Source: an uncultured Oscillospiraceae bacterium (lineage in GTDB: Bacteria > Bacillota > Clostridia > Oscillospirales > Oscillospiraceae). From it: a stretch of 57,726 nt of DNA. Under the pieces are notes generated by a model. That model saw only the letters and a program-made list of their open reading frames with translations. It made no database searches and had not been told where the DNA came from. Both the position numbers and the translations under genes were made by a program. Numbering within the stretch: the stretch's first letter is position 1; the number at the start of each line of letters is the position of its first letter. Where the stretch lies: assembly GCA_944383195.1 (NCBI GenBank), contig CALWOP010000003.1:1-57726 (forward strand). Direction: 5' to 3'. This document shows, one piece after another, positions 2,995 through 31,077 of this stretch.

Positions 2995-3042
2995 ATTACT
3001 CACACTTTTTTAGAAACGATATTCAATTTGGAGGTTTTGATT

Positions 3043-3489
3043 ATGAAAGTCATTTTGCAGCAGGATGTACGCGGCCAGGGTAAGAAGGGTCAGCTGGTGG
3101 ATGTTTCTGACGGCTACGCCCGCAACTTCCTCCTCCCCAAGAAGCTGGCGGTCATTGCCACGGCCGAGAACCTGAACACCATGAAGCAGCAGGAGAAGGC
3201 CCGCAAGGCCCAGGAGGCCGCCGAGAAGGCTGAGGCCGAGGCCACTGCCAAGAAGCTGGAGGGTCTGATGGTGAAGATCCCCGCCAAGGCCGGAGAGGGC
3301 GGCCGCCTGTTCGGCGCCGTCACTGCCAAGGAAGTGTCCGAGGCCCTTGCGGCCCAGCACGGCGTGAACATCGCCAAGGCCAAGCTGGTACTGGACGAGC
3401 CCATCAAGGCCTGCGGCGGCTACCAGATCAAGGCAAAGCTGGGTTATGAGATCGTGGGCACCGTCAATGTGATGGTGACCGAGGCTTAA
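3043..3489 (+). CDS. rplI: 50S ribosomal protein L9
   Basis: Structural protein of the large ribosomal subunit, bound to 23S rRNA near the L1 stalk. The 148-residue product is full length: MKVILQQDVRGQGKKGQLV and GYARNFLLP at the N-terminal RNA-binding domain, a long charged connecting helix (about 50-75) and the C-terminal domain. Start ATG at 3043, preceded by TTGGAGG. It lies 48 nt after gdpP and 40 nt before dnaB, so the three are probably co-transcribed. Confidence 0.96.
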   Translation: MKVILQQDVRGQGKKGQLVDVSDGYARNFLLPKKLAVIATAENLNTMKQQEKARKAQEAAEKAEAEATAKKLEGLMVKIPAKAGEGGRLFGAVTAKEVSEALAAQHGVNIAKAKLVLDEPIKACGGYQIKAKLGYEIVGTVNVMVTEA

Positions 3490-3529
3490 GTTCCGCGTTT
3501 GAATTTTCCATTGAAAAGCAGGTGACATT

Positions 3530-4885: not shown

Positions 4886-4974
4886 CCTCTCCCCTTTCAG
4901 GCGGCAGCGGACCATCCCAACGCAGATGTCCCGGTGTTCTTCCTGTTCATTCTGCGTGTGCTGAGGAGGCCCGT

Positions 4975-6425: not shown

Positions 6426-6968
6426 ATGTTGGAACAGGATATTCAGGAGATTCTTTTTACAGAGGAACAGTTGAAGACTCGCGTGCAGGAGATCGCCCAA
6501 GAGATTCAGCGGGATTATGAGGGCAAGGAGATCATGCTCATCAGCGTGCTTCGGGGCTCTTTCATTTTTATGGCTGACCTGTGCCGGGCCATTGACCTGC
6601 CCTGTACGCTGGACTTTATGTCTGTCTCCTCCTACGGCAGCGGCACCACGTCCAGCGGTCAGGTCCAGATCACCAAGGATCTGTCTGAGGACATTACCGG
6701 CCGCCACATTATTGTGGTGGAGGACATTTTGGACAGCGGCAATACCCTGAGCTATCTGCTGAAGATTCTGGAGCATCGCCACCCCGCCTCCATCCGTCTG
6801 TGTACCCTTCTGGATAAGCCCGACCGCCGCGTGAAGCCGGTGAAGGTCCACTATTCCGGCTTTACCATCCCCGATGCCTTTGTGGTGGGATACGGGCTGG
6901 ATTACGCGGAAAAGTACCGCAACCTGCCTTACATCGGCATTGTAAAGCCCGAGGTCTACGGCGGGTAA
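6426..6968 (+). CDS. hpt: Hypoxanthine phosphoribosyltransferase
   Basis: Purine salvage enzyme joining hypoxanthine or guanine to PRPP to give IMP or GMP. 180 residues from ATG 6426, typical for the family. The PRPP-binding motif IIVVEDILDSGNTL lies at about 95-108; the substrate loop SSYGSGT is near 66-72, and VVGYGLDYAEKYRNLPYIG is near the C-terminus. The in-frame ATG at 6414 is rejected because it would sit almost at the transcription start; AAGG five bases before 6426 fits better. Lies between tilS and ftsH. Confidence 0.94.
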   Translation: MLEQDIQEILFTEEQLKTRVQEIAQEIQRDYEGKEIMLISVLRGSFIFMADLCRAIDLPCTLDFMSVSSYGSGTTSSGQVQITKDLSEDITGRHIIVVEDILDSGNTLSYLLKILEHRHPASIRLCTLLDKPDRRVKPVKVHYSGFTIPDAFVVGYGLDYAEKYRNLPYIGIVKPEVYGG

Positions 6969-12842: not shown

Positions 12843-13378
12843 GAAAAGAAGTGATTCTGGCCGGCTTTGGAGGACAGGGCGTCATGTCCATCGGCAAAAA
12901 TCTGGCCGAAGCCGGTGTGGAGGAAGGACTAGAGGTCTCCTGGGTCCCCTCTTACGGCCCCGAGATGCGAGGGGGCACTGCCAACTGCACGGTCATCCTC
13001 ACGGATGAGCGCATCGGCGCCCCTCTGGTAGACCACCCCACAGAGATCGTCGTCATGAACCGGCCCTCCCTGGCCAAGTTTGAGCCGGTCCTCCGTCCGG
13101 GAGGCACCGCCTTTGTCAATAGCAGCATGATTCCGGAACGGGTCGGGCGCACTGATGTGAGGGCAGTCTATGTCCCCTGCGATGAGATCGCTGAAAAACT
13201 GGGCTCTCCAAAGGTGGGCAACATGGTCATGCTGGGGGCCTATGTGGCCGCCACCCAGGTTTTGAAGGTGGAGACCATCGAAGCCATGATCCACGCCATG
13301 TTCACCGGGCGAAAAGCTGATCTGGTACCTATGAACCTGGCCGCTTTTCATCAGGGGATCGCCTGTGTCACCTTTTAG
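12839..13378 (+). CDS. korC: 2-oxoacid:ferredoxin oxidoreductase gamma subunit
   Basis: 179-residue gamma subunit: AGFGGQGVMSIGKNLAEAG (about 8-26), PSYGPEMRGGTANCTV (about 38-53). This domain binds CoA and closes the active site in the complex. The ATG overlaps the beta-subunit stop by 4 nt (ATGA), indicating translational coupling. Last gene of the operon, followed by a bidirectional terminator. Confidence 0.92.
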   Translation: MRKEVILAGFGGQGVMSIGKNLAEAGVEEGLEVSWVPSYGPEMRGGTANCTVILTDERIGAPLVDHPTEIVVMNRPSLAKFEPVLRPGGTAFVNSSMIPERVGRTDVRAVYVPCDEIAEKLGSPKVGNMVMLGAYVAATQVLKVETIEAMIHAMFTGRKADLVPMNLAAFHQGIACVTF

Positions 13379-19990: not shown

Positions 19991-20112
19991 AAGTCGGAAC
20001 AAGCCGCATAACGCTTGCTCCGACTTGTGTTTGCCTGCCGAAAAAGATGCGCCAGTCTAAGTGCCTGCCCCCAAAACCAAATCGAAGCCCAGCACAAGCG
20101 GGTTCGATTTGG
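19991..20112. repeat. Hairpin-rich intergenic DNA beyond the tRNA-Leu 3' half
   Basis: Two imperfect hairpins: 19991-20004 with 20013-20026 (AAGTCGGA-n-CAAGC and its complement, one mismatch) and 20077-20086 with 20103-20112 (CCAAATCGAA). No start codons with ribosome-binding sites or coding pattern. It lies outside the island, on the old host side of the broken tRNA gene. Function unknown. Confidence 0.55.
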
Positions 20113-20139
20113 AGAGGAAGAGCAAGGGAGCGGGCGGAT

Positions 20140-20199
20140 GACGTCTTTTTTGCCTACGACAAAAAAGACGTCGGAGCAAAGCGGACTTTGCTCCGACGT
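20140..20199 (-). terminator. Terminator of the original tRNA-Leu, in two competing hairpins
   Basis: Read on the minus strand, directly after the tRNA CCA end: a 14-bp stem (ACGTCGGAGCAAAG, 20168-20181, with 20186-20199, 4-nt loop) followed by TTTTTTG, a textbook rho-independent terminator. A second 13-bp hairpin (20140-20152 with 20160-20172) overlaps its 3' arm, so the two cannot form together. Confidence 0.75.
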
Positions 20200-20251
20200 G
20201 GTGCGGGCATGGGGACTCGAACCCCAACGCCGTGAAGTACGAGAACCTAAA
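20199..20251 (-). pseudogene. 3' half of a tRNA-Leu(UAG), left edge of the island
   Basis: On the minus strand: anticodon loop TTTAGGT (20251-20245), anticodon-stem 3' strand TCTCG, a 13-nt variable region, T arm TGGGG/CCCCA around TTCGAGT, acceptor strand TGCCCGC, then ACCA. The sequence stops being tRNA exactly at the loop; upstream (20252 on) it becomes a different sequence. Its missing strand partners are found in the 5' half at 30851-30889, with which all stems pair perfectly. A terminator follows its 3' end. By itself it cannot fold into a tRNA. Confidence 0.9.
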
Positions 20252-20269
20252 GGTGATGTCACCCCAGTG
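20252..20269. repeat. Left inner arm of the candidate attP palindrome
   Basis: GGTGATGTCACCCCAGTG immediately inside the left core. It is the inverted complement of the right inner arm (30836-30853 region) at 16 of 18 positions, leaving TAAA in the centre when the ends are joined. Confidence 0.75.
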
Positions 20270-20303
20270 ACAAACAACAATTCTATTAACCGACATGGTT
20301 CCG

Positions 20304-21424
20304 TCAGTCTGCAACAATGGGCAGACGTTGTCCCAGTCGGGAAAGGAGTTCATTAGTGATCGTGCCGCACCGCCCAGCCACATCTTCTGCCCGAATCACT
20401 TCTCCCCCATCTGTTCCAATGATTGTTGCCACATCACCGGGCTTCACGCAAGGCACATCGGTCACATCCACCATCAGCTGATCCATGCACATTCGCCCCA
20501 CCATAGGACAGCGCGTTCCGTGAAGCAGTACCTCTCCCCCTTGCTGGGACAGGCTGCGAGGCAGGCCGTCGGCATAGCCGATGGTAACCACTGCCAACCT
20601 CCGCATTTGATCCGCCCGAAAGGCCAAGCCGTATCCCGCTCCCTCGCCGGGCAACATGGTACGCACCAAGGCTACCCGGGCGCGCAGGGAAAGCACTGGG
20701 TGCAAATCCAGCTTTCGTTCTGTGGGGGCGTCATTGCTGAAGATACCGTAAAGAGCGATTCCTGCCCGTGCCCAGGAACATGGCTGAGGCGGCAAATTCC
20801 AGATGCCGTAGCTTGCCTGGATGTGGATTTCTCCCGGGTTCATGCCATGGGTCTTGAGCCATCGGACCGCCCCGTAAAACTGTTCTAATTGCGTGTGGGT
20901 AAAGGACACATCCTTCGCTTCCAGGCTGTCCGACACGCATAGATGGGAAAATGTCCCCTGAATATTTAAATTGGGCAATTCATACAGAGGCTTATAGCCT
21001 CATGATCCTCCACCGGAATGCTCAGGCGGTGCATACCGGTATCCAACGCCAGGTGGACTGAGAGCGGCACACCTTGGGCGGCCAGCGCTCGGCCGTGATC
21101 CTCATCCACTACCGTCTGGACGAGCTTCCACCGGCAAATATGGAATGCCATACCCGGCGGCGTGTAGCCCAGAATCAGGATTTTTCCCTGGACACCGGAC
21201 TGGCGCAGAGCGATTCCCTCCTCCAGGCAGGCCACTGCAAAGGCCTTCACTCCCTCTGCCTCCAACCGCCGGGCCACGGGGATTGACCCATGTCCATATG
21301 CGTCAGCCTTCACTACCGACATTAAACGGCAGCCAGGGGCCAGTGCACCCTGAAGCACCCGGGCATTGTGGGCCAGAGCGCTCAGATCCACTTCCCGCCA
21401 GGCCCGACTTGTTTCCTCACGCAT
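20304..21424 (-). pseudogene. Alanine/serine racemase gene with a one-base frameshift
   Basis: Would encode a PLP-dependent racemase of about 373 residues making D-Ala or D-Ser for the van pathway. The 5' part (21424 to about 20992) has the PLP lysine K39 in SVVKADAYGHG and ends early after ...VEDHEAISLCMNCPI. The 3' part (about 20992 to 20304) carries on in another frame with PLYELPNLNIQGTFSHLC, the catalytic tyrosine in GAGYGLAF, and VTIGYADGLPR. Adding one A in GCTATAAGCC (20989-20999) restores a continuous reading frame, so one base has been lost or miscalled. Compared with VanT of known vanG/vanC clusters it lacks the membrane acyltransferase part. The ATG at 21424 overlaps the acetyltransferase stop. 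Confidence 0.85.
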
Positions 21425-21890
21425 ATCCCGTTCCCCCTTCCAAAATCCGGGGCGGCTGGGCCACTACGGTGCATCCCGCCGGAATATTCTGACACACCAC
21501 CGCTCCTGCACCGATCTTTACCCCGTCGCCGATGCGGATATCCCCCACCAGCACCGCACCCGCTCCAATGAGACACCCATTTCCCACAACAGGGGCCCGA
21601 CGGTTTACCTCCCCGATGGTGACATTCTGATAGATCCGACACCCCGCGCCTATGGTGGCGAAACGGGAAATATAGACTCCGTGGAGTCCGTGTGGCAGCA
21701 GCGGTTCTCCCAGGATCACAGCGCCGGGCCCCACATAGCCTCCGTGCCGTCGGGCGCTGCGGTTGAAGAAAAAGGTTAAAATATCCCGGATCATCTTCCG
21801 CTTTGCCCGGTTTCGCAGGCGGTAAAGGCGCCAGAAGCCCGTCATTCTGTCCCCTTTGGACCAGTCGGTAAAAACTTCTCGTAAAGACAC
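21417..21890 (-). CDS. Short serine O-acetyltransferase-like left-handed beta-helix protein
   Basis: 157 residues. Hexapeptide-repeat left-handed beta helix from about residue 55 (GPGAVILGEPLL, IGAGCRIYQNVTIGE, IGAGAVLVGDIRIGDGVKIGAGAVV, ending AQPPRIL), closest to CysE/serine acetyltransferases but without the long N-terminal helical domain of CysE. GTG start at 21890 after GGAGG. It sits between vanXY and the racemase gene, 6 nt after vanXY and overlapping the racemase start by 8 nt. VanT of other vanG clusters has an acyltransferase domain of a different, membrane kind fused to the racemase. Whether this protein makes O-acetylserine or acts on another substrate is unknown. Confidence 0.8.
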   Translation of the reverse strand: MSLREVFTDWSKGDRMTGFWRLYRLRNRAKRKMIRDILTFFFNRSARRHGGYVGPGAVILGEPLLPHGLHGVYISRFATIGAGCRIYQNVTIGEVNRRAPVVGNGCLIGAGAVLVGDIRIGDGVKIGAGAVVCQNIPAGCTVVAQPPRILEGGTGYA

Positions 21891-21896
21891 GTCCGT

Positions 21897-22625
21897 TCAC
21901 CTCCAGGTGGTAACCACAAAGCCGCCGCAGTTGTCCTCCGACACCTGACAGTAGCTCCCGGGTTCTGAGAGCAGATCCTCACGGACTGTCTCGTCACAAT
22001 ACCAGATATGGAATACGTGGGAGGCTGCACAGACAGTCAGAGGCCGCCGGGAATAGTCCCGACGCAGCATCGCCACATATTCCTCCAGAACAAACCCCTG
22101 TTCAGCCATGAATCTTGCATGGGGCACGCCCACATAGCGGAAGTGCCATGGCTCGTGGGCAATGCCAGTGACCGCCTCTTTCCCGGCAGGATAACGCAGA
22201 ATGAAGCCGTAATCCGCCGCCTGCTTCCGGAAGGCGCCGCACACACCGCTATATGGGAAATTGGGGCGGATGAAGTCGATCTCCTCCGATGCCAAACCCA
22301 GATCGATGGCCAGACCGGTTTGATGTTCGCTGCACCCGGGAAGGGCCACATACTGCCGAGTAAATGCCTCTCCCTCCTTGACCAGCGTGTCGTCCCAGAT
22401 GGCCTGCTGCTCTTCTTGGCTGCGCCAGCCAGAGACGGGGACAATTGCTTTTTCTCCCCCCACAGCCCGGATGCAGGCATTGAGGAGCCCTGCCGCCCGC
22501 CGCTCCATCTGAATCTCCGGCCAACGGGGGTTCACGCAGACCAGGTCCGATGCGGTGGAGGTTGGCATGGAGTGGGCAGCGTTTACCAGCAACAGAGCGC
22601 CGGTGGTCCGTGTAAGGGTTCTCAT
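21897..22625 (-). CDS. vanXY: VanXY-type D,D-dipeptidase/carboxypeptidase
   Basis: Zinc peptidase of the M15B family that in vanG/vanC clusters removes D-Ala-D-Ala dipeptide and the terminal D-Ala of precursors. 242 residues. The zinc ligands are visible: SEHQTGLAIDLG with H101 and D108, and EPWHFRYVG with catalytic E158 and ligand H161. A C-terminal extension of about 50 residues ends GGFVVTTWR. There is no signal peptide, so it acts in the cytoplasm. The ATG overlaps the vanG stop by 4 nt (ATGA). Assignment is supported by motifs and by its position right after a VanG-type ligase. Confidence 0.9.
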   Translation of the reverse strand: MRTLTRTTGALLLVNAAHSMPTSTASDLVCVNPRWPEIQMERRAAGLLNACIRAVGGEKAIVPVSGWRSQEEQQAIWDDTLVKEGEAFTRQYVALPGCSEHQTGLAIDLGLASEEIDFIRPNFPYSGVCGAFRKQAADYGFILRYPAGKEAVTGIAHEPWHFRYVGVPHARFMAEQGFVLEEYVAMLRRDYSRRPLTVCAASHVFHIWYCDETVREDLLSEPGSYCQVSEDNCGGFVVTTWR

Positions 22626-23656
22626 ACGCCCACCTCCTCAATGATGCAGGTGATGAGGGTGGTAAAATCCAGGCCCGCCGCTTTCATCATGTTGGGATAA
22701 CGGCTGTGGGCAGTGAAGCCGGGAATGGTATTCACCTCATTGAAGACAATTTCCCCTTCCGGGGTGAGAAACAGGTCCACCCGAGCAAAGTCCTTGCAGT
22801 CTAGGGCTTGGTAGATCGTCTTGGCCGCCGCCTGGATCTCCGCCGCCTTTTGGGGCGGAATGCGGGCGGGGCAGTGGATGGCGGAGGTTTTCAGGGTGTA
22901 CTTCTCTTCAAAGTCGAAGAAGCCCTGGGAGAGTTCGATCTCGTCCACCGCGCCCACAGTGAGCTCATCGGTACCCAGTACGGCACAGCCTCCCTCGAAA
23001 CCTGGGATAGCCTCCTCCAGCAGCAGTTCCCGGTCGTTGGCAAAAGCGGCGGCTGCCGCCCCGGGCAGCCCTTCCGGGCCGGTGACCCGGGTGATACCAA
23101 AGGAGGACCCGGCCCGGACGGGCTTCACGAAGAGGGGATAGCCCAGTTTCGCTGCTGCCGCTTTGATTTCGTCCATCCCCGCGCCTCGGCGGAACACTGC
23201 ACTTCGGGGCACCTTCACTCCGGCCAGGGCGGCCAGCTTGTGGGCCCGGTCCTTGTCCATACACAAGGCAGAGGACAGCGTGCCGCAGCCGATGACCGGG
23301 ATCCCTGCCAACTCCAGCATGCCCTGGAGGGTGCCGTCCTCCCCGTTCTTGCCGTGGAGCACCGGAAAGGCTGCGTCAAAGGGTAGCTGCATGTCGCTGC
23401 CGTCCAACAGGAGCAGATGGGTCACTCCCCGGCTGAGGGCCAGGGTACAAGGGACACATTCAGATCCCTGCCAGCGGTCGGCGGGGATGTTGTCGGGTGC
23501 ACCAGTATAATAGAGCCAGCTGCCGCTCTGAGTGATACCCACCATCAGGGGCTCAAATCGGCTCCGGTCCAGGTGAGTCAGAACCGCGTGGGCCGACTGG
23601 AGAGACACGCCGTATTCGGTGGAACAGCCGCCGAAGAAAATCAAAATCCGTTTCAT
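22622..23656 (-). CDS. vanG: VanG-type D-alanine--D-serine ligase
   Basis: ATP-grasp ligase that forms D-Ala-D-Ser, which replaces D-Ala-D-Ala in peptidoglycan precursors and lowers glycopeptide binding. 344 residues. VLHGKNGEDGTLQGMLELAG (near 94), GCGTLSSALCMDKDRAHKL, VKPVRAGSSFGIT, the omega-loop FFDFEEKYTLKTSAIHCPAR, and FNEVNTIPGFTAHSRYPNMM follow VanG of Enterococcus closely, more than housekeeping Ddl. Start ATG 23656 follows GGGAGG; an in-frame TTG at 23671 overlaps that site. It is preceded by a terminator-like hairpin and candidate VanR sites. It looks intact although its regulator and racemase are damaged. Confidence 0.92.
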   Translation of the reverse strand: MKRILIFFGGCSTEYGVSLQSAHAVLTHLDRSRFEPLMVGITQSGSWLYYTGAPDNIPADRWQGSECVPCTLALSRGVTHLLLLDGSDMQLPFDAAFPVLHGKNGEDGTLQGMLELAGIPVIGCGTLSSALCMDKDRAHKLAALAGVKVPRSAVFRRGAGMDEIKAAAAKLGYPLFVKPVRAGSSFGITRVTGPEGLPGAAAAAFANDRELLLEEAIPGFEGGCAVLGTDELTVGAVDEIELSQGFFDFEEKYTLKTSAIHCPARIPPQKAAEIQAAAKTIYQALDCKDFARVDLFLTPEGEIVFNEVNTIPGFTAHSRYPNMMKAAGLDFTTLITCIIEEVGV

Positions 23657-23670
23657 ATGAAAACCTCCCA

Positions 23671-23716
23671 AAAGAAAATGCCCTGTTTTGGTATCAAAAT
23701 GGTACCAAAACAGGGC
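23671..23716 (-). terminator. Terminator-like hairpin between vanS and vanG
   Basis: 14-bp perfect stem (GCCCTGTTTTGGTA, 23680-23693, with 23703-23716) followed on the minus strand by ATTTTCTTTT, just 15 nt before the vanG start. It separates vanS from the resistance genes or attenuates readthrough into them. Confidence 0.7.
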
Positions 23717-23769
23717 GCTTCATGTATTTGTTTTCTCTTTCGGGGTTCCTGTGATTTTCTCAAAAAATC

Positions 23770-23785
23770 CTTACGATTTTCTTAC
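23770..23785 (-). promoter_or_regulatory. Candidate VanR-type direct repeat upstream of vanG
   Basis: On the minus strand GTAAGAAAATC GTAAGGATTTT: the pentamer GTAAG repeats at exactly 11 bp, the spacing used by OmpR/PhoB-type regulators. It overlaps the vanS stop codon. A matching -10/-35 pair is not clear. Confidence 0.45.
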
Positions 23786-24888
23786 TGGGGTAGGGTGACG
23801 GTGAAGAGCACCTCTTCTCCCTCACTCCGGGCGGTGATGGTGCCGCCGTGGGCCTCCACGATCTCTTTGGCGATGGCCAAGCCCAGTCCGGCGTTTCCGG
23901 TGCGGGTGCCCCGGGAGGCATCCAGGCGAAAAAACTGCTCGAACATCCGGGAGAGCTTTTCCGGGGGGATGGCAGGTCCGGCGTTGCGGAAGGTCATCAC
24001 GATTTTTGCCTCTTCTGTCCGGGCCGCCACTCGAAGAACTGAATCGGAGTAGGCATAGTGGCAGGCGTTGTTGAGCAGATTGTCGAAAACCCGGGCCATC
24101 TTGTCCGGATCACAGACCACCCGCAGCTCTCCGGGCAGGTCCAGCTGGCAGGTCATCCCCCTCTGGGCTAGGACTGGGCCAAACTCGCTGCACATCTGCT
24201 CCAGCATCCGCTTCAGGTCGGTGTCCCCTCTCTCTAGCTCCAAATGGGTGAGGCTGAAGCGGGTTATATCAAAGAATTCATTGATGAGATCCTCCAGCCG
24301 CTCAGCCTTCTCCAGGGCTACACCGGTGTAGCGCGCCCGCATGTCCGGGGAGAGCCCCGGCTCGTCCCGCAGGAGGGTGAGGTAGCCGATGACGCTGGTA
24401 AGGGGCGTTTTCAGGTCATGGGCCAGGTAAACCACCAGGTCGTTTTTCCGCTGCTCGGCGTCTTTGGCAGCCTGAGCGGCCCGGAGAGCCTGTTCCCGAG
24501 CCAGATTCAGCTGGTCCTCGGCACTTTTCAGCCCCTGTGGCAAACGGATCGGGGCATCCGTGGGATGAGCCAGCTCCTCCGCCCCGGAGAGCAGCCACTC
24601 CAGATCCCGGGCAGAGCGTGCAATGAAATAATAGCTGATGGCCACCCAGCCCAGAAGCACCACCACCGTCCCCACCAGAACGATATAGTCCCGCACCCAG
24701 TTCAGAAGCTGATAGAGGGGATTGTTCTCGTACCAGGTAAATCGAGAGCACACCAAGAAGCCCAGCAAAGCCAGGGCGATCACCGCTGTCACCCAGGCAG
24801 CCAGAGTCAACAGGTAAAGCCCCCAAGTGCGAAGACCCGCCCGTTTCCCCCGCTCTTCCCGTTCCGTTGGAATCCTCTGTTTACTCAA
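23782..24888 (-). CDS. vanS: VanS-type sensor histidine kinase
   Basis: Membrane sensor of about 368 residues. Two membrane helices (about 25-47 and 68-90 from the TTG start) flank a short outer loop, as in VanS of vanG/vanC clusters. The HAMP-like linker leads to the phospho-acceptor H-box YLAHDLKTPLTSVIGY (His near 157), N-box DNLLNNACHYAY and G-box GNAGLGLAIAKE. No Met is suitably placed; the TTG at 24888 overlaps the vanR stop (ATTGAGTAA) behind a G-rich stretch and is taken as start. It should phosphorylate VanR, but VanR here has lost its receiver half, so signalling is probably broken. Confidence 0.88.
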   Translation of the reverse strand: MSKQRIPTEREERGKRAGLRTWGLYLLTLAAWVTAVIALALLGFLVCSRFTWYENNPLYQLLNWVRDYIVLVGTVVVLLGWVAISYYFIARSARDLEWLLSGAEELAHPTDAPIRLPQGLKSAEDQLNLAREQALRAAQAAKDAEQRKNDLVVYLAHDLKTPLTSVIGYLTLLRDEPGLSPDMRARYTGVALEKAERLEDLINEFFDITRFSLTHLELERGDTDLKRMLEQMCSEFGPVLAQRGMTCQLDLPGELRVVCDPDKMARVFDNLLNNACHYAYSDSVLRVAARTEEAKIVMTFRNAGPAIPPEKLSRMFEQFFRLDASRGTRTGNAGLGLAIAKEIVEAHGGTITARSEGEEVLFTVTLPQ

Positions 24889-25312
24889 TGGTATACCCCA
24901 CCCCCCACACAGTTTTGATAAACTTCGGCTTGCGGCTGTTCTCATGCATCTTTTCCCGCAAGCGGGCAATATGGCTCATGACTGTATTGTTGCTGTCCAT
25001 ATATTTTTCGCCCCAAGCTGCCTCAAACAGCTCCTCGCTGGATACTACCTGGCTCTGCCGGCTGCACAAGTACCAGAGGATAGAGAATTCCAAAGGCGTA
25101 AGGGAGAGTTCTTCCCCAAAAAGAAAGCACTTATGATTGACTTTGGAAATCTGCAGTCCCCGAATATCGTACTCCTGGGGGATCTCCTCTCCACAGCCAC
25201 TGCTTGGGTTGTAGCGGGTGTAGCGCCGCAGCTGGGTCTTGACTCGCGCCACCAACTCCAGAGGGTTGAAGGGCTTTGTAATGTAGTCGTCCGCCCCCAG
25301 GGTATCAATGGG
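24881..25312 (-). pseudogene. vanR: VanR-type response regulator, 5' part deleted
   Basis: What remains is the end of the receiver domain (LGADDYITKPFNPLELVARV, with the conserved Lys of the KP motif) and a complete OmpR-type winged-helix domain (LSLTPLEFSILWYLC ... NTVMSHIARLREKMHE ... FIKTVWGVGYTIE). The first ~90 residues, including the phosphorylated Asp, are missing. Upstream in the same frame the sequence reads an unrelated MGGRLHRCLRMM, and the promoter of the next plus-strand gene begins within 65 bp. The deletion junction is near 25308. The DNA-binding domain might be made if transcribed from somewhere, but it could not be controlled by VanS. Confidence 0.88.
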
Positions 25313-25374
25313 CATCATCCGCAAACATCTGTGCAGCCGCCCTCCCAATCAATGGACTGCCATGGCCGCACCGG

Positions 25375-25402
25375 TTGCACTTCGGCAAACTTTTTGTATA
25401 AT
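25375..25402 (+). promoter_or_regulatory. Sigma-A promoter of the TetR gene
   Basis: TTGCAC, a 16-bp spacer and TATAAT at 25397-25402, 36 bp before the regulator's start codon. It lies right against the vanR deletion junction. Confidence 0.75.
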
Positions 25403-25437
25403 GGAGTCAACTACAATATTTGAGGGAAGTGAACACC

Positions 25438-25998
25438 ATGTCCACCGCCACAAAGCAGGCTTTGGAGACCTCTTTAAAACGGATGCTTTTAAAAAAGCCC
25501 TTGGATAAGATCACCATACGAGACATTACAGAGGACTGCGGCATCAGCCGCATGACCTTCTACTATCATTTCAAAGATATTTACGACTTGGTCGAGTGGG
25601 TCTGCGTGGAGGACGCTGCCCAGGCCCTGCAAGGAAAAAAGACTTCCTCCACCTGGTCGGAGGGCCTGCTTCAGATTTTTGAAGCAGTGCTGGAAAATAA
25701 GCCCTTTATTCTCAACGCATACCGCTGTATCAGCCGGGATCAGATGGAGAATTTTCTCTTTGCGCTGACCTATGACTTGATTCGCGGCGTGGTAGAGGAA
25801 CAGAGCCAGGGCATCAATATCTCCGAAGCAGACAAGGCATTCATTGCTGAATTCTATAAGTACAGCTTTGTGGGGATCATGCTGGACTGGATCAAACAGG
25901 GAATGCACGCAGATTACCAAACGATTGTGGATAAAATCAGCACTACTATGCGGGGCAATGTCTCCCGCTCCATCAAAAACTTTGCTGACCTGGCATGA
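25438..25998 (+). CDS. TetR-type regulator upstream of oleate hydratase
   Basis: 186-residue regulator with an N-terminal helix-turn-helix (ITIRDITEDCGISRMTFYYHF, about 23-43) and a TetR_C_8/DhaS-like ligand domain. ATG 25438 is preceded by GAGGGAAGTG. It is on the same strand as oleate hydratase, 148 bp upstream, separated by a hairpin. It may control that gene in response to fatty acids; this is inferred from position only. A relationship to dihydroxyacetone-kinase regulators (DhaS) is another possibility from the sequence type. Confidence 0.86.
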   Translation: MSTATKQALETSLKRMLLKKPLDKITIRDITEDCGISRMTFYYHFKDIYDLVEWVCVEDAAQALQGKKTSSTWSEGLLQIFEAVLENKPFILNAYRCISRDQMENFLFALTYDLIRGVVEEQSQGINISEADKAFIAEFYKYSFVGIMLDWIKQGMHADYQTIVDKISTTMRGNVSRSIKNFADLA

Positions 25999-26008
25999 TA
26001 TTTTATCA

Positions 26009-26051
26009 AACCGGACCTGGTGATTAGTTTTTTATCACTGGGCCCGGTTTG
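26009..26051 (+). terminator. Imperfect hairpin after the TetR gene
   Basis: AAACCGGACCTGGTGAT at 26009-26025 pairs with two mismatches to 26035-26051 around a T-rich loop. The T-run after the stem is poor, so termination is likely partial. Confidence 0.5.
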
Positions 26052-26082
26052 TAAATGGTAGAAACCTGCAAAGTGGGGTACT

Positions 26083-26142
26083 ATATAGCCACATTCCATC
26101 AAGCACACTGTAAAAAAGTGATTACCGGAAAGGTGGCTATAT
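26083..26142 (+). promoter_or_regulatory. Inverted repeat enclosing the oleate hydratase ribosome-binding site
   Basis: ATATAGCCAC at 26083-26092 is a perfect inverted repeat of GTGGCTATAT at 26133-26142. The right arm contains the 3' part of the ribosome-binding site AAAGGTGG, five bases before the ATG. An inner CACT/AGTG pair lies in the loop. If transcribed, it would hide the ribosome-binding site. Confidence 0.55.
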
Positions 26143-26146
26143 TCTT

Positions 26147-28114
26147 ATGGCAAAGAATCTTGGAAAATGGACTGCGGCGGCGGCTGGTCTGGCTGGGGCT
26201 GGCGCGGCAGTGGTATTGGCGAAAAAAGCGGCGGCTAAGCGGAGCCCCGAGGAGACCCCCGTATCTGCGCTCAACGATTACCGCAACACAGAGCTGGGCC
26301 GCCACGAGAAAAACGCCAAGGGCATCTACTATACCAGTGGCAACTATGAGGCCTTTGCCCGCCCGGAGAAGCCCGCGGGCGTGGAGGGAAAGAACGCCTA
26401 TATTGTGGGCAGCGGTCTGGCTGCTCTGGCGGCGGCCTGCTTCTTGGTACGGGACGGACAGATGGACGGGTCCCGCATCCACATTCTGGAGGCCATGGAC
26501 GTAGCCGGAGGTGCCTGCGATGGCATTTACGACCCCACCCGGGGCTATATCATGCGGGGCGGCCGGGAGATGGAGGACCACTTTGAGTGCCTGTGGGACC
26601 TGTTCCGCTCCATTCCCTCCCTGGAGAAGCCCGGAGCCTCGGTGCTGGACGAGTTCTACTGGCTCAACAAGCACGACCCCAACTATTCCCTGTGCCGTGC
26701 CACCGTCAACCGGGGGCAGGACGCCCACACGGACGGAAAGTTTAACCTCAGCCAGAAGGGCTGTATGGAGATCGTTAAGCTCTTCATGACCCCCGACGAG
26801 GACCTGTACGACAAGACCATCGAGGACGTCTTTGACGATGAGGTATTTTCCTCCACCTTCTGGCTCTATTGGCGCACCATGTTCGCCTTTGAGAACTGGC
26901 ACTCTGCTTTGGAGATGAAGCTCTATTTCCAGCGCTTCATCCACCACATTGCCGGCCTGCCTGATTTCAGCGCCCTGAAATTTACCCGCTATAACCAGTA
27001 TGAGTCCCTCATTCTGCCCATGAAGAAGTACCTGGAGGAGGCCGGGGTGGACTTCCAGTTCGGTGTGGAGGTGACCAATGTTCTCTTTGACATCAAGGGG
27101 GGCAGAAAGGTAGCCACCGCTATCGAGTGCAAGGTCAAGGGCGTGGAACAGGGCATCGTGCTCACCGAGAACGACCTGGTTTTTGTCACCAACGGGTCCT
27201 GTACCGAGGGGACCATCTACGGCGACCAGGACCACGCCCCCAACGGGGACGCCGAGGTGCGCACCAGCGGCTGCTGGAGCCTGTGGAAGAACATCGCCAA
27301 GCAGGACCCGGCCTTTGGCCATCCGGAGAAGTTCTGTTCTGATGTGGCCAAGACCAACTGGGAGTCGGCCACCATCACTACCCTAGACGACAAAATCCTG
27401 CCCTATATCAAAAACATCTGCCAGCGGGACCCCCGGACCGGCAAGGTGGTCACTGGCGGTATCGTCAGCTGCCAGGACTCCAAGTGGCTGCTGAGCTGGA
27501 CCATCAACCGTCAGGGACAGTTCAAAGAGCAGGAGCCGGAGAAGGTCTGTGTCTGGGTATATGGCCTCTTCACCGATGTGCCCGGCGACTTTATCCGAAA
27601 GCCCATGAAGGAGTGTACCGGCAAGGAGATCACTCAGGAGTGGCTCTACCACTTGGGTGTGCCGACGGAGCTGATCCCCCAGCTGGCCGAGGAGAGCGCG
27701 GTGTGCGTGCCCACCATGATGCCCTATATCACCGCCTTCTTTATGCCTCGGACTAAGGGAGACCGTCCCGACGTGATTCCTGACGGCTGTGTAAACTTTG
27801 CCTTCCTGGGCCAGTTTGCCGATACGCCCCGGGATACGGTGTTTACCACCGAGTACTCCGTGCGCACCGCCATGGAGGCCGTCTACGGCCTGCTGGGTGT
27901 GGACCGGGGCGTGCCTGAGGTATGGGGCAGCGTATACGACATCCGCTGCCTGCTGGACAGCTCGGTGTGTCTGATGGACGGCAAGTCCCCCTTGGACATG
28001 GAACTGCCCGGCCCGCTGAATTTGCTGAAAAAACCGGCCCTCAAGCTGATTCGTGGCACGGTGGTAGAAAAGGTACTGCGGGACCACAACATCCTCCGGG
28101 AGGAAATGGAGTAA
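26147..28114 (+). CDS. ohyA: Oleate hydratase (myosin-cross-reactive antigen family)
   Basis: FAD-dependent enzyme that adds water to the cis-9 double bond of oleate and related unsaturated fatty acids, giving 10-hydroxy fatty acids; thought to detoxify them in gut bacteria. 655 residues. After a hydrophobic, Ala-rich N-terminal helix (about 9-32) come YEAFARPEKPAGV, the dinucleotide-binding YIVGSGLAALAAACFLVRDG (about 85-104), RGGREMEDHFECLWDLF and KFTRYNQYESLILPM, all typical of the family. The N-terminal helix is not in most described enzymes and suggests membrane attachment. It lies between two TetR genes in the island and ends at a strong terminator. Confidence 0.93.
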   Translation: MAKNLGKWTAAAAGLAGAGAAVVLAKKAAAKRSPEETPVSALNDYRNTELGRHEKNAKGIYYTSGNYEAFARPEKPAGVEGKNAYIVGSGLAALAAACFLVRDGQMDGSRIHILEAMDVAGGACDGIYDPTRGYIMRGGREMEDHFECLWDLFRSIPSLEKPGASVLDEFYWLNKHDPNYSLCRATVNRGQDAHTDGKFNLSQKGCMEIVKLFMTPDEDLYDKTIEDVFDDEVFSSTFWLYWRTMFAFENWHSALEMKLYFQRFIHHIAGLPDFSALKFTRYNQYESLILPMKKYLEEAGVDFQFGVEVTNVLFDIKGGRKVATAIECKVKGVEQGIVLTENDLVFVTNGSCTEGTIYGDQDHAPNGDAEVRTSGCWSLWKNIAKQDPAFGHPEKFCSDVAKTNWESATITTLDDKILPYIKNICQRDPRTGKVVTGGIVSCQDSKWLLSWTINRQGQFKEQEPEKVCVWVYGLFTDVPGDFIRKPMKECTGKEITQEWLYHLGVPTELIPQLAEESAVCVPTMMPYITAFFMPRTKGDRPDVIPDGCVNFAFLGQFADTPRDTVFTTEYSVRTAMEAVYGLLGVDRGVPEVWGSVYDIRCLLDSSVCLMDGKSPLDMELPGPLNLLKKPALKLIRGTVVEKVLRDHNILREEME

Positions 28115-28155
28115 TTTCCCCCTCTTCTCTCTTCATTACAATCCTACTTGCCTCT

Positions 28156-28192
28156 GGGGCGGCGTTTGATCACGCCGCCCCTTGCTTTTTTC
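28156..28192 (+). terminator. Terminator of oleate hydratase
   Basis: GGGGCGGCG (28156-28164) pairs with CGCCGCCCC (28173-28181), followed by TTGCTTTTTT. Confidence 0.88.
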
Positions 28193-28317
28193 TAGACCAT
28201 GAGGTAAAATAAAGACAAAATTTAAAAGATAACTTTATTAGGGGCGAGAACATACCAAAGGTTGCTTATTCCGACGCGGACCGGGAAGGAGTTCGTAGCG
28301 CGCTCATCACCACCGCA

Positions 28318-28881
28318 TTGGAGCTGATGTCCCGGCAAGGTGTCCAGCATACCACTGTGGAACAGGTCTACAAGGCCGTTGGCATTTCCCGCACCTTTTT
28401 CTACACCTTTTTCCCTTCCAAAGAGGACCTGATTGTAGAAACACTGTATTTCCAGCAGCCCAAGCTCCTCGCCTATGCCCAGCATCTGATGGAGGACCCA
28501 GCCTTGGACTGGCGGGAAGGTGTGGCCCAATTTCTCACCACCTGCTGCTATGGAGAGCGGAGCGGTATCGCCACCCTGACGGTGGAGGAGCAGCAGTTGA
28601 TTTTCCGCCGCTTATCTCCCGAGAGCTACCGGATCTTTCGGACCAAGCAGGCCCGCCTGTTTGATGATCTTCTGTCCTGTTTTGGGGTGCAGCCAAGTCC
28701 AGAACGGACCAGTTTATTTACCAATCTCTGTCTGGCTGTGATTATTTTTCGCCATGCGATCCCCGACACCCTACCTCTGTTTGTCCCGGAAGCTGCCGAC
28801 CAGACCACACAGATTCAAATTCACGCCATTGTGGACTGCCTGGAAGCGTTTCGCCGCCAGGATCAAACCGCTTCGTTGTGA
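28318..28881 (+). CDS. Second TetR-type regulator, start codon uncertain
   Basis: Regulator of at least 187 residues, given here from the TTG at 28318. The helix-turn-helix reads TTVEQVYKAVGISRTFFYTFFPSKEDL; the C-terminal domain is all-helical. A normal TetR first helix (REGVRSALITTALELM) continues in frame upstream of this TTG, to a good ribosome-binding site AGGGGCG at 28240-28246. Seven bases after it, where ATG is expected, the codon is ATA (28252). Either translation starts at ATA, or the start codon has been lost and a shortened protein starts at TTG. Downstream of oleate hydratase on the same strand; role unknown. Confidence 0.8.
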   Translation: MELMSRQGVQHTTVEQVYKAVGISRTFFYTFFPSKEDLIVETLYFQQPKLLAYAQHLMEDPALDWREGVAQFLTTCCYGERSGIATLTVEEQQLIFRRLSPESYRIFRTKQARLFDDLLSCFGVQPSPERTSLFTNLCLAVIIFRHAIPDTLPLFVPEAADQTTQIQIHAIVDCLEAFRRQDQTASL

Positions 28882-28890
28882 CGCTGCATT

Positions 28891-28937
28891 ATCCGCTGAA
28901 ACAACTATATTTGCCCTTGTTTCAGCGGATATTCTTT
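28891..28937 (+). terminator. Terminator of the second TetR gene
   Basis: A 14-bp perfect stem, ATCCGCTGAAACAA (28891-28904) with 28917-28930, followed by ATTCTTT. Confidence 0.7.
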
Positions 28938-28980
28938 CCGTTTAATAAAGATATTTTTCTATTTTTATCTTTCTTTCTGT

Positions 28981-29003
28981 GCCGCCTTCGGGCGGCATTT
29001 TTT
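28981..29003 (+). terminator. UUCG-tetraloop terminator
   Basis: GCCGCC-TTCG-GGCGGC followed by ATTTTTT; the T-run reads into the stop codon of the convergent NIF3-like gene. Confidence 0.8.
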
Positions 29004-29334
29004 ATATTCCGACTTGATACAGGGGGATCACATTGATCACCGGCTCCTCATAGGGGTGCACGGCCTTGACCGCCGCCAGTGTCTCCTCCAGCTTCTCTCT
29101 TCGGCAGGTAACCTCTACTTCCAGTTCCTGTTCCGTGCTCAGCGCTCCCACCTGCCCCAGATAGGGCTGGCTTCCCGCCAAGGGCCGCCAGCAACTGGTG
29201 ACCGGACTGTAAGACAGACAGCTGTCATAACTGCAGATATGTCCTGCATCGGCCTGCTGTAATGCTTGCTGAAGGGCAAGCAAGTGACTCTCGGGAATAA
29301 AAATCTCCAATTTGCAACAGGAAATCTCGATCAT
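29002..29334 (-). CDS. NIF3/YqfO-type PII-like small protein
   Basis: 110 residues, matching the inserted CutA/PII-like domain of NIF3 (DUF34/YqfO) proteins as a stand-alone form: N-terminal KLEIFIPESHLLALQQALQQADAGHI and the C-terminal signature VKAVHPYEEPVINVIPLYQV. Such domains form trimers and may bind metals or small ligands; the cellular role is not known. ATG at 29334 follows AGAAGGG; the longer in-frame extension upstream has no such signal and is not used. Single gene, between two transcription terminators. Confidence 0.8.
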   Translation of the reverse strand: MIEISCCKLEIFIPESHLLALQQALQQADAGHICSYDSCLSYSPVTSCWRPLAGSQPYLGQVGALSTEQELEVEVTCRREKLEETLAAVKAVHPYEEPVINVIPLYQVGI

Positions 29335-29404
29335 GGTTTCTTTCCCTTCTCTCTGGCACAAATGATAGAATGTGTACTTTATTGTACCACATCTCCCGAA
29401 CTTA

Positions 29405-29447
29405 TGAAAAGAAAGCCCGGACACGGAAGCTGTCTCCGTGTCCGGGC
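29405..29447 (-). terminator. Terminator of the YczE-type gene
   Basis: A 13-bp perfect stem, GCCCGGACACGGA (29415-29427) with 29435-29447. On the minus strand it is followed by TTTCTTTTC. Confidence 0.85.
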
Positions 29448-29461
29448 CGCTTGATGTTCGG

Positions 29462-30109
29462 TTATAAATACCGCTTGGCAAAGGCCTCCATGGGACGGTT
29501 GATTTGCTTGGCCACCAGACCCACACAGATGGCCGCCGCCACAGTGCCCTCCCGCACCCCTTCCAGCTGTCCCAGGAAAAGGAAGGATAGGGTACTGGCA
29601 ATGACCACCAGTGTTACGTCAAAGCCCACCTTGGCGTTGGCAAATTTCAGCGGAAATACCTTGCACAGGGCCAGTACCATCCCTTCGCCCGCTAGAGCGA
29701 CCACGTTGGCGGTGACCTCAAAGCTGACACCTACCCCAACCAGAAGAATTCCTATCACACACAGTACCCACTGCATGAGATAGGAATCGACAGACACCCC
29801 CTGGATCGCCAAGACACTGAAATCAGTTAAGGCTCCAAAGATCAGGGCCACCGGCAGCTGCATGAGCTGGATGGGATCATAGCGGCGGCGCAGAAGCAGA
29901 ATTTGCAGACAAATAAGGACCACGTGCATGGCAATGGTAGCGGTACCCACAGTAAGGGGCGTCAGCAGGCTGAGCACATAGGGCAGACTGGAAATGGGTG
30001 AGGTACCCAGCCCCGCCTTGATGGAAAAGGCCACACCAAAGGCCATAATGGCCAGCCCCACACACAGGAGCACATACCGCTTGACCTGTCCCAAAATCCC
30101 TGTTTTCAT
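29462..30109 (-). CDS. YczE/YyaS-type integral membrane protein
   Basis: 215 residues with five or six membrane helices (about 10-30, 48-72, 80-102, 108-130, 155-178). GVAFSIKAGLGTSPISSLPYVLSLL near 25-49 is typical of the YczE/YitT-like group (BCR, YitT family). Members are often next to antibiotic or regulatory genes but no transported substrate is established. ATG at 30109 has a moderate ribosome-binding site. It has its own consensus promoter and terminator; last protein gene before the island's tRNA-Leu. Confidence 0.82.
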   Translation of the reverse strand: MKTGILGQVKRYVLLCVGLAIMAFGVAFSIKAGLGTSPISSLPYVLSLLTPLTVGTATIAMHVVLICLQILLLRRRYDPIQLMQLPVALIFGALTDFSVLAIQGVSVDSYLMQWVLCVIGILLVGVGVSFEVTANVVALAGEGMVLALCKVFPLKFANAKVGFDVTLVVIASTLSFLFLGQLEGVREGTVAAAICVGLVAKQINRPMEAFAKRYL

Positions 30110-30192
30110 TCCGTGGATTCCTTCCCTCCGGCTCTAAGAGGGGCTCTCAGCCTCTTTCCTGAGTCTTTTTCTAACAACTTATCATAACATTT

Positions 30193-30220
30193 ATTATAGT
30201 CCTTTCCGCTTCCCTGTCAA
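30193..30220 (-). promoter_or_regulatory. Sigma-A promoter of the YczE-type gene
   Basis: Minus strand TTGACA, 16-bp spacer, TATAAT. The remaining stretch to the tRNA-Leu terminator (30221-30386) shows nothing recognisable. Confidence 0.8.
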
Positions 30221-30381
30221 GATGACAGGAACAGAGCAAAGAATCGCCAAGTGGCTCATCTTTCATAGTGACGGGGTGTCCAGTACACCGCCGCCGCATT
30301 TGGCACTGGGCTGTCTGTCTCCAACGCAGTTTGAGGCAAGTCTCCTGGCACCTCGGGCAGCATAATGGATGTATCTGCAAA

Positions 30382-30428
30382 AAGAAAAGCTACATTTCAG
30401 CCTCGTTTATAAGGCTAAAATGTAGCTT
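30382..30428 (-). terminator. Terminator of the intact tRNA-Leu
   Basis: AAGCTACATTTCAGCC (30387-30402) pairs with 30413-30428, one G-U/mismatch, followed on the minus strand by TTTTCTTTTT. Confidence 0.85.
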
Positions 30429-30434
30429 CCAACT

Positions 30435-30520
30435 TGGTGCGGGCGGCGGGACTCGAACCCGCACACCACTGAGGTAACGGAACCTAAATCCGTCGAGTCT
30501 ACCAATTCCACCACGCCCGC
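30435..30520 (-). tRNA. tRNA-Leu(UAG), intact copy carried by the island
   Basis: 86 nt with encoded CCA. Acceptor GCGGGCG/CGCCCGC, D loop GAATTGGTAGA, anticodon stem ACGGA/TCCGT around TTTAGGT (anticodon UAG), long class II variable arm with ACC/GGT stem, T arm GCGGG/CCCGC around TTCGAGT. The D stem GTG/CTC has a central U-U mismatch. It reads CUN leucine codons, the same as the broken tRNA whose halves border the island, and so can replace it. Confidence 0.95.
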
Positions 30521-30835
30521 AAATATGAGCGGCAGGGCTTCCTGTCGCTATTTTATTGCCCTCTGTTTTTACACGGCGAGGGAACCGAGGCGGAGCGCAT
30601 TGCTTGATCCGCGTATAAAAACAGGACGAGCCTGCTTTTACCTGGTTGATGGCAAATTTCTTCACTGAGGTGACAGCACCTAAATCCTGCACGTCTGCCA
30701 ATTCCGTCATACCCGCATATTCACTTTCCCTCTATTTTTACTCGGGGAGGAGATACCTGAGGCAAAGCGTTGCGCTTGACCCGTGTCTATAAAAACAGGC
30801 CAACCCTGCTTTTACCTAATTGATGGGGAATCTTT
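30521..30835 (-). repeat. Two homologous copies of the island's right-end sequence
   Basis: Segments 30521-30662 and 30717-30835 align over about 110 bp (shared runs include GGTAAAAGCAGG, CCTGTTTTTATA, ATCAA on the minus strand) at roughly 70-80% identity by eye. Each contains an inverted repeat CTGTTTTTA ... TAAAAACAG (or TAAAAATAG) and each ends, on its right, at the same core plus 15-nt trailer joined to a tRNA-Leu 5' half. Confidence 0.75.
30678..30716 (-). pseudogene. Orphan 5' half of another tRNA-Leu(UAG)
   Basis: Minus strand: acceptor strand GCGGGTA, TG, D stem ACG/CGT around GAATTGGCAGA, anticodon-stem strand CAGGA, loop TTTAGGT, then the non-tRNA trailer GCTGTCACCTCAGTG (30677-30663). 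Structurally sound but different from both other tRNA-Leu copies. Its 3' half (which should contain TCCTG and TACCCGC) is not in this window. Confidence 0.82.
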
Positions 30836-30850
30836 CACTGAGGTGACAGC
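30836..30850. repeat. Right inner arm of the candidate attP palindrome
   Basis: CACTGAGGTGACAGC immediately inside the right core. Together with the first three core bases it is the inverted complement of 20252-20269 at 16 of 18 positions. Identical to 30663-30677 next to the orphan half. Confidence 0.75.
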
Positions 30851-30889
30851 ACCTAAATCTCGCATGTCTACCAATTCCATCATGCCCGC
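30851..30889 (-). pseudogene. 5' half of the split tRNA-Leu(UAG), right edge of the island
   Basis: Minus strand: acceptor GCGGGCA, TG, D stem ATG/CAT around GAATTGGTAGA, G, anticodon strand CGAGA, loop TTTAGGT, then the trailer GCTGTCACCTCAGTG. Joined at the loop to the 3' half at 20199-20244 it gives an 85-nt tRNA in which every stem pairs: GCGGGCA/TGCCCGC, CGAGA/TCTCG. The upstream flank (GCCGCTCATATTT) is shared with the intact copy at 30435-30520. Confidence 0.9.
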
Positions 30890-31077
30890 AAATATGAGCG
30901 GCAAATAGTTCCCGCCGCTATTTTGCAATCCCCTCAAGTCAGGATAAAGCCAAGCGTGCATCACTGCCATTTCCTCTTTTAGGCACGCTTAGCTTTCATC
31001 ATACACAACATCAGGCAAAAAGTCAATTCATCTGCGGTAATTTCATTCTGACTTTGAGCCGCAGCACGCAGTACCTG

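What the first reader, a model, noticed from the sequence alone, without database searches (positions are those of the whole stretch)
20199..30889. A tRNA-Leu(UAG) gene split in its anticodon loop by a 10.6-kb island
Seen in sequence: the 3' half (20199-20251) and the 5' half (30851-30889) are on the same strand in the right order. Both contain the loop TTTAGGT. Joined there they give an 85-nt tRNA with acceptor GCGGGCA/TGCCCGC, D stem ATG/CAT, anticodon stem CGAGA/TCTCG and T stem TGGGG/CCCCA, all perfect. A terminator follows the 3' half. Chance pairing of four stems from DNA 10 kb apart is very unlikely. Integration into tRNA genes usually restores the gene from attP; here it does not. The island therefore breaks a tRNA gene, and must make up for it.
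Basis: seen in the sequence. Interest (0 to 1): 0.95.

Follow-up and report, generated by a model that had tools for sequence, protein, structure and literature searches.

The report
Mobile DNA that swaps a tRNA
In this gut bacterium a tRNA-Leu gene is cut in two in its anticodon loop and a complete, different tRNA-Leu gene with the same anticodon sits just inside the break; relatives show the same layout around elements with paired serine recombinases, which likely break the cell's own gene and supply a working substitute as they integrate.

Summary
The split tRNA-Leu(UAG) is real: 3' half 20199-20251, 5' half 30851-30889, 7/7 acceptor and 5/5 anticodon-stem pairs. 10 of 26 same-genus loci fetched have an uninterrupted 85-nt gene directly after the same neighbour gene. 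G012, a one-contig genome, has the same plan elsewhere, and there the replacement is the only UAG gene by our pattern. A scan of public genomes gave 77 hits: 61 carry the 5' half, 47 of those an intact tRNA-Leu(UAG) downstream, 16 are ladders. In 10 of 10 loci with both ends the 3' half fits a 5' half. 16 of 40 genomes with the site encode the serine recombinase, 14 of 16 inside an element end. A relative does the same to tRNA-Leu(CAG). Best reading: mobilizable elements break tRNA-Leu and bring a whole replacement, likely read from the captured host promoter; each replacement is a new target, so insertions stack. The window is a relic of at least two insertions without recombinases. Recombination, transcription and excision are untested.

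The parts
30998..31026 (-). promoter-like site TTGACT-17-TATGAT upstream of the outermost 5' half; likely the captured host tRNA promoter
   Evidence: same kind of site before uninterrupted relatives' genes
30851..30889 (-). 5' half 'a' of the broken tRNA-Leu(UAG), ends in TTTAGGT
30836..30853 (-). right arm GGTGCTGTCACCTCAGTG (first insertion), overlaps the GGT of half 'a'
30678..30716 (-). 5' half 'b', a second broken tRNA-Leu(UAG) of different sequence
30663..30680 (-). right arm GGTGCTGTCACCTCAGTG (second insertion)
30435..30520 (-). intact tRNA-Leu(UAG), the replacement
   Evidence: ARAGORN; only intact UAG match in the 87% complete genome
30384..30428 (-). terminator-like hairpin and T-run after the replacement (by eye)
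29462..30109 (-). DUF6198 / YczE-like membrane protein
25420..28881 (+). TetR (25420-25998), MCRA-family protein (26147-28114), TetR (28318-28881)
23782..25348 (-). VanS-like kinase (23782-24969) and C-terminal part of a VanR-like regulator (in ORF 24881-25348)
   Evidence: VanS below the curated cut-off
21897..23671 (-). VanG-type ligase (22622-23671, above its curated cut-off) and VanXY-like protein (21897-22625, below)
20304..21424 (-). VanT-like racemase read in two frames (20966-21424 and 20304-20978); one frame in G012; not mended
20252..20269 (-). left arm CACTGGGGTGACATCACC, near inverted copy of the right arm
20199..20251 (-). 3' half of the broken tRNA-Leu(UAG), fits half 'a' best
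20157..20197 (-). terminator-like hairpin and T-run after the 3' half (by eye)

Best explanation
The tRNA-Leu(UAG) gene here is split in its anticodon loop and an intact tRNA-Leu(UAG) of different sequence lies 331 nt inside the break, which is likely the remnant of at least two insertions of a mobilizable element whose paired large serine recombinases are predicted to cut in that loop and whose end carries a complete replacement tRNA predicted to be read from the broken gene's promoter. Shown: the halves, arms and replacement, the uninterrupted relatives, the same plan in many genomes, and recombinase genes inside many fuller elements. Inferred: that these recombinases do the joining, that transcription runs through the 5' half into the replacement, and that the cell depends on it. 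Because the replacement has the same anticodon loop it is a fresh target, so a later element can insert into it; this leaves a ladder of 5' halves. In the window the recombinases are gone, so the host would be left with the foreign tRNA.
For: Halves fit in 10 of 10 loci with both ends (acceptor 7/7 in 10, anticodon stem 5/5 in 9, 4/5 in G117); the replacement's own 5' part fits less well in 9 of 10. Uninterrupted genes at the site in relatives. 61 of 77 scan hits have the tRNA 5' half, 47 of 61 an intact tRNA-Leu(TAG) downstream within 3 kb. In G012 the replacement is the only intact UAG match. Six of ten paired loci carry the recombinase pair, one a remnant; 16 of 40 genomes with the site encode it, 14 of 16 on the inner side of an element end on the same contig. 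Promoter-like sites before the outermost half in 29 of 59 loci against 2.6% of shuffles, not above chance in the spacers: 4 of 47 against 4.7%, 1 of 19 against 5.0%. Same plan on tRNA-Leu(CAG) with a 55.7% identical recombinase. The window's replacement is identical in both halves to a tRNA broken in G121.
Against: No recombinase in the window, G012 or the locus of G121, and none at E<=1e-120 in 64 same-genus genomes, 10 of which match the right end (in several genomes only 22 candidates were scored). 24 of 40 genomes with the site lack it. No joined-end form in viral contigs, 250 loci or 400 genomes. The 3' partner of half 'b' was not found. G125 has two UAG genes by pattern, and in G017 a replacement has decayed while a UAG gene stands elsewhere, so the replacement is not always the only one. 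3 of 61 loci show no intact tRNA in the stretch held.
Confidence: 0.87

Rival explanations
1. An ordinary tyrosine-integrase island at a tRNA gene: the intact tRNA at 30435-30520 is the target restored by attP, 20199-20251 is the displaced 3' fragment, and the 5' halves are unrelated debris.
For: An intact tRNA at one end and a 3' fragment at the other is the usual signature (PMC4383910, passages); 40 nt of the two are 80% alike.
Against: The 3' half fits the 5' half better than the intact gene in 9 of 10 loci; the 5' halves all end at one place and continue into a conserved arm; the enzymes found in the fuller elements are serine recombinases; no tyrosine integrase was met among the ORFs scanned.
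Confidence: 0.04
2. A DDE transposon with inverted-repeat ends that duplicates the four bases TTTA of its target.
For: Ends are inverted repeats and TTTA stands at both sides in the window.
Against: In G116, G117 and G125 the left side reads CTTAGG and the right TTTAGG, so the repeat is not a copy of the target; in these loci it lies in one tRNA position only; no DDE transposase was met among the G105 proteins scanned.
Confidence: 0.03
3. Tandem duplication and decay of tRNA-Leu genes without any mobile element.
For: Halves lie in tandem; 10 of 65 neighbouring pairs are identical over 39 nt.
Against: 42 of 65 neighbouring pairs match at 34 or fewer of 39 positions; breaks always fall at TTTAGGT in the pattern-selected loci; matching 3' halves lie 5 to 34 kb away behind an inverted arm; recombinases lie between. 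The pattern selects for the break point, so that point alone is weak.
Confidence: 0.03
4. A working split tRNA whose two transcripts are joined.
For: Perfect stems between the halves.
Against: An intact gene with the same anticodon lies beside the halves in 10 of 10 paired loci; in G012 the broken half's loop reads TTTCGGT; half 'b' has no 3' partner found.
Confidence: 0.02

Closest known systems
Genomic islands in tRNA/tmRNA genes (Islander, PMC4383910; passages seen)
   Same: Site-specific insertion in the anticodon loop of a tRNA gene; displaced tRNA fragment marks one end.
   Different: Those use tyrosine integrases and restore the gene with a fragment in attP; here the gene stays broken and a whole different tRNA gene is brought. 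[quoted passage not shown]
Integrative and mobilizable elements with serine recombinases (PMC5704250; passages seen)
   Same: Large serine recombinase, relaxase, insertion inside a gene that stays broken.
   Different: The genes broken there are described as dispensable; here it is a tRNA gene and a replacement is carried; two recombinases instead of one.
Archaeal tRNA-Thr disruption (Sugahara 2012, PMC3293823; outline, section 6 and part 1 of section 7 read)
   Same: A 5' tRNA fragment lies upstream of an intact tRNA with a putative recombinase between them.
   Different: One archaeal population; explained there by restoration from attP with gain of an intron; no matching 3' half, no replacement by another tRNA, no ladder.
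Cassette chromosome recombinases CcrA/CcrB
   Same: Two adjacent serine recombinases of about 430 and 550 aa; Ccr models are among the best NCBIfam matches.
   Different: About 59-78 bits against cut-offs of 700-900; other target gene (recalled).

Membership tests
Island in a tRNA gene, Islander type | Insertion in a tRNA gene, displaced fragment at one end | tested here: met
Island in a tRNA gene, Islander type | Target gene restored by a fragment in attP | tested here: not met
   3' half fits the 5' half better than the intact gene in 9 of 10 loci
Island in a tRNA gene, Islander type | Tyrosine integrase | tested here: not met
   G105 enzymes are serine recombinases; none of either kind in the window ORFs scanned
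Integrative mobilizable element with serine recombinase | Large serine recombinase genes | tested here: met
   fuller relatives; window copy: not found
Integrative mobilizable element with serine recombinase | Relaxase | tested here: met
   G105 PF03432, similar proteins in 4 more of 10 loci; not in the window
Integrative mobilizable element with serine recombinase | Excision and transfer | not testable with these tools
   no joined-end form found
SCC element (CcrA/CcrB) | Recombinases above the Ccr curated cut-offs | tested here: not met
DDE transposon | Identical target duplication at both ends | tested here: not met
   CTTAGG against TTTAGG in G116, G117, G125
Functional split tRNA | Halves are transcribed and joined | not testable with these tools
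   no RNA data; decayed halves and an intact gene argue against

The most novel reading that the evidence does not exclude
In many gut Clostridia the CUA-reading tRNA has thus become mobile DNA, replaced again and again, with the ladder of broken halves as the record of each takeover; a sister lineage does it with tRNA-Leu(CAG).
Probability: 0.7. Interest if true: 0.9.

Novelty: new variant of a known kind. Interest (0 to 1): 0.85.

Why it matters
Islands in tRNA genes are described as harmless because they restore the gene, and serine recombinases as not known to target tRNA genes (PMC4383910, passages). Here a core gene is broken and exchanged for the element's own version. If true, a core tRNA is a horizontally moving part, tandem tRNA fragments in these genomes are explained, cargo such as defence genes gains a way to stay put, and serine recombinase pairs with a defined palindromic end site and a natural landing site become available for study.

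Tried and rejected
Tyrosine-integrase island, DDE transposon, tandem duplication and split-tRNA readings: see rivals. A recombinase in the window interval was sought among the ORFs given to Pfam and NCBIfam and by tblastn and not found (not every ORF was scanned). The joined-end pattern was not found in viral contigs, the 250 loci then held or 400 family genomes with up to 2 mismatches. The recombinase was not found in viral contigs; plasmid and phage records gave hits under 60% identity only, one of them useful. A 3' partner for half 'b', and a second left end beyond vanT in G122 (about 2 kb of contig left), were sought and not found. 8 literature searches found no description of this arrangement; the library holds only openly licensed PMC papers. 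PMC12884075, PMC8371274 and PMC10083194 were seen as passages and do not describe it there. A still older 5' half upstream of 'a' (about 30960-30990) is suspected by eye only.
Full report
What is there. In transcription order (minus strand) the window shows: a promoter-like site TTGACT-17-TATGAT (31026-30998); a 5' half of tRNA-Leu(UAG), 'a' (30889-30851); the letters GGTGCTGTCACCTCAGTG; a spacer; a second 5' half of different sequence, 'b' (30716-30678), followed by the same letters; a spacer; an intact tRNA-Leu(UAG) (30520-30435); about 10 kb of genes; and CACTGGGGTGACATCACC followed directly by TTTAGGT and the 3' half of a tRNA-Leu (20251-20199). The 3' half pairs 7/7 and 5/5 with 'a', 7/7 and 4/5 with 'b', 7/7 and 3/5 with the 5' part of the intact gene, G-T allowed.

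The gene was once whole. Of 26 same-genus loci fetched round the neighbour gene DUF3842 (20, 6 of the 11), 10 have an uninterrupted 85-nt tRNA-Leu(TAG) directly downstream on the same strand; L080 has one on the other side; several contigs end there or show other genes. Half 'a' differs from the gene of L066 at 1 of 39 positions. L183, a contig of another assembly, is 99.8% identical to window 27650-30735, which speaks against an assembly error on that side.

The same plan elsewhere. G012, a one-contig genome, holds a 5' half (L085:6529-6567), the right arm, an intact tRNA-Leu(TAG) of another type (6632-6716), a vanG cluster 90.8% identical to the window's, the left arm and a 3' half (12950-13002) identical over 53 nt to the uninterrupted gene of L069. 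By a 30-letter pattern with up to 3 mismatches its only UAG-loop match besides the broken half is the replacement; G007, a one-contig genome without the right-end pattern, has one uninterrupted gene; in the window's own genome (87% complete) the replacement is the only intact UAG match (the listing was cut, but these genomes are fully listed). Exceptions: G125 has two UAG genes by this pattern.

How common. The right-end pattern matches 10 of 64 genomes of the genus; in G017 the 5' half is not preserved. A scan of species genomes hit 77 stretches. 61 of 77 have the tRNA 5' half upstream; their records are named as Clostridia. The other 16, all but one (Pseudobutyrivibrio) outside Clostridia, have none; about 30 chance hits would be expected (own arithmetic, even base use). 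Of the 61, 47 have an intact tRNA-Leu(TAG) within 3 kb downstream on the same strand, 11 end within 250 nt, 3 show none in the stretch held; 45 have one 5' half, 15 two, 1 four. These are stretches, not genomes, and a few share a record. Of 65 neighbouring pairs of copies 42 match at 34 or fewer of 39 positions and 10 are identical.

Both ends. 40 of the 61 loci's genomes were searched for the left end and 17 matched; 23 of the 40 were searched for right-end coordinates; 8 have both on one contig in the right orientation. With the window and G012 this makes 10 loci of about 5 to 34 kb. In 10 of 10 the 3' half fits a 5' half 7/7 in the acceptor stem, with 5/5 anticodon-stem pairs in 9 and 4/5 in G117; the replacement's own 5' part fits less well in 9 of 10, equally in G105. 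In G121 the 3' half fits the third of four 5' halves, and that broken tRNA is identical in both halves to the window's intact replacement: newcomer in one genome, victim in another.

Who does it. Six of the ten loci (G097, G105, G114, G117, G122, G125) encode two adjacent serine recombinases of about 420-430 and 550-600 aa. For G105, Pfam finds resolvase, recombinase and zinc-ribbon domains, a MobA/VirD2-like relaxase and an AAA domain; five of the six have a similar relaxase and six a similar AAA protein. G116 keeps a C-terminal remnant. Of 40 genomes with the site 16 encode the larger recombinase or part of it; in 14 of 16 it lies on the same contig as an element end and on its inner side; G092 and G107 could not be placed. 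None was found in 64 genomes of the window's genus at E<=1e-120, with only 22 candidates scored in several; so there the sites seem to be relics. G105 carries proteins like Avs2 and PDC-S37/Hhe. The left core is CTTAGG in G116, G117 and G125 where the right is TTTAGG, which fits exchange between two different sites and not a target duplication. That the recombinases carry out the exchange is inferred.

How the replacement is expressed. In 80 loci given to one script, some from the same genome twice, a promoter-like site scores 10 or more of 12 before the outermost 5' half in 29 of 59 (single-base shuffles 2.6%), in 4 of 47 spacers before the replacement (4.7%) and in 1 of 19 between halves (5.0%). 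So polymerase likely starts at the host promoter and runs through the broken half into the replacement. From wobble rules (recalled) tRNA-Leu(UAG) is needed for CUA codons, so a break without replacement should be lethal.

A second target. OY725838.1, labelled plasmid 4 of Subdoligranulum variabile (109,843 bp), holds one recombinase 55.7% identical to that of G105 and the same plan on tRNA-Leu(CAG): a 5' half ending in TTCAGGT followed by AATGAAACCTCAGG (L252:16507-16545), an intact tRNA-Leu(CAG) (L252:16680-16766), and a 3' half from L251:32246 preceded by a near inverted copy of the arm, about 39 kb away.

What the window is. At least two insertions: one broke 'a' and brought 'b', the next broke 'b' and brought the gene at 30435-30520. 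Only the 3' half that fits 'a' is left; recombination between two left ends would remove the inner 3' half and the older element in one step (inference). The vanG cluster lies inside here and in G012 but just outside the 3' half in G122 (81% identity), so whether it came as cargo is open.

Comparison. [quoted passage not shown] A review of mobilizable elements (PMC5704250, passages) has serine-recombinase elements interrupting dispensable genes. Sugahara 2012 (PMC3293823, outline, section 6, part 1 of section 7) is the closest precedent. Eight searches found no report of elements that break a tRNA gene and carry a full replacement.

Limits. No circle or joined-end form was found; there are no RNA, recombination or viability data; many genomes are incomplete; counts of UAG genes rest on a pattern. 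The genus is that of Pseudoflavonifractor phocaeensis An901, judged by equal coordinates of G060 and G103.

Noticed in passing
window 20304-21424: The VanT-like racemase reads in two frames here while the G012 homologue is one frame; described only.
   Followed up: no
L247 (G122) 1311-6292: A vanRSG-XY-T cluster 81% identical to the window's lies just outside the 3' half instead of inside the element.
   Followed up: partly
L119:4502-5164, L118:6277-7005, L065:5200-5511: An ORF without Pfam match lies between the right arm and the replacement tRNA in several elements, in the same orientation.
   Followed up: partly
window 20066-20251: The trailer after the tRNA 3' end recurs after other tRNA genes of the genus, e.g. 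tRNA-Pro in L076.
   Followed up: no
L235:1542-5858, L236:4479-9119, L238:9875-12412: Cargo next to the element ends resembles anti-phage proteins: Avs2, PDC-S37/Hhe, and a weak Avs5-like SIR2 protein.
   Followed up: partly
OY725838.1 (L251, L252): A tRNA-Leu(CAG) gene split and replaced sits on a record labelled plasmid.
   Followed up: partly
L116:4690-4950 (G017): A right arm without its 5' half is followed by a decayed tRNA copy, while an intact UAG-type match lies elsewhere in that genome.
   Followed up: no
L085:17979-18022 (G012): A weaker second match to the tRNA 3' half (79% over 47 nt) lies about 5 kb past the element's 3' half.
   Followed up: no
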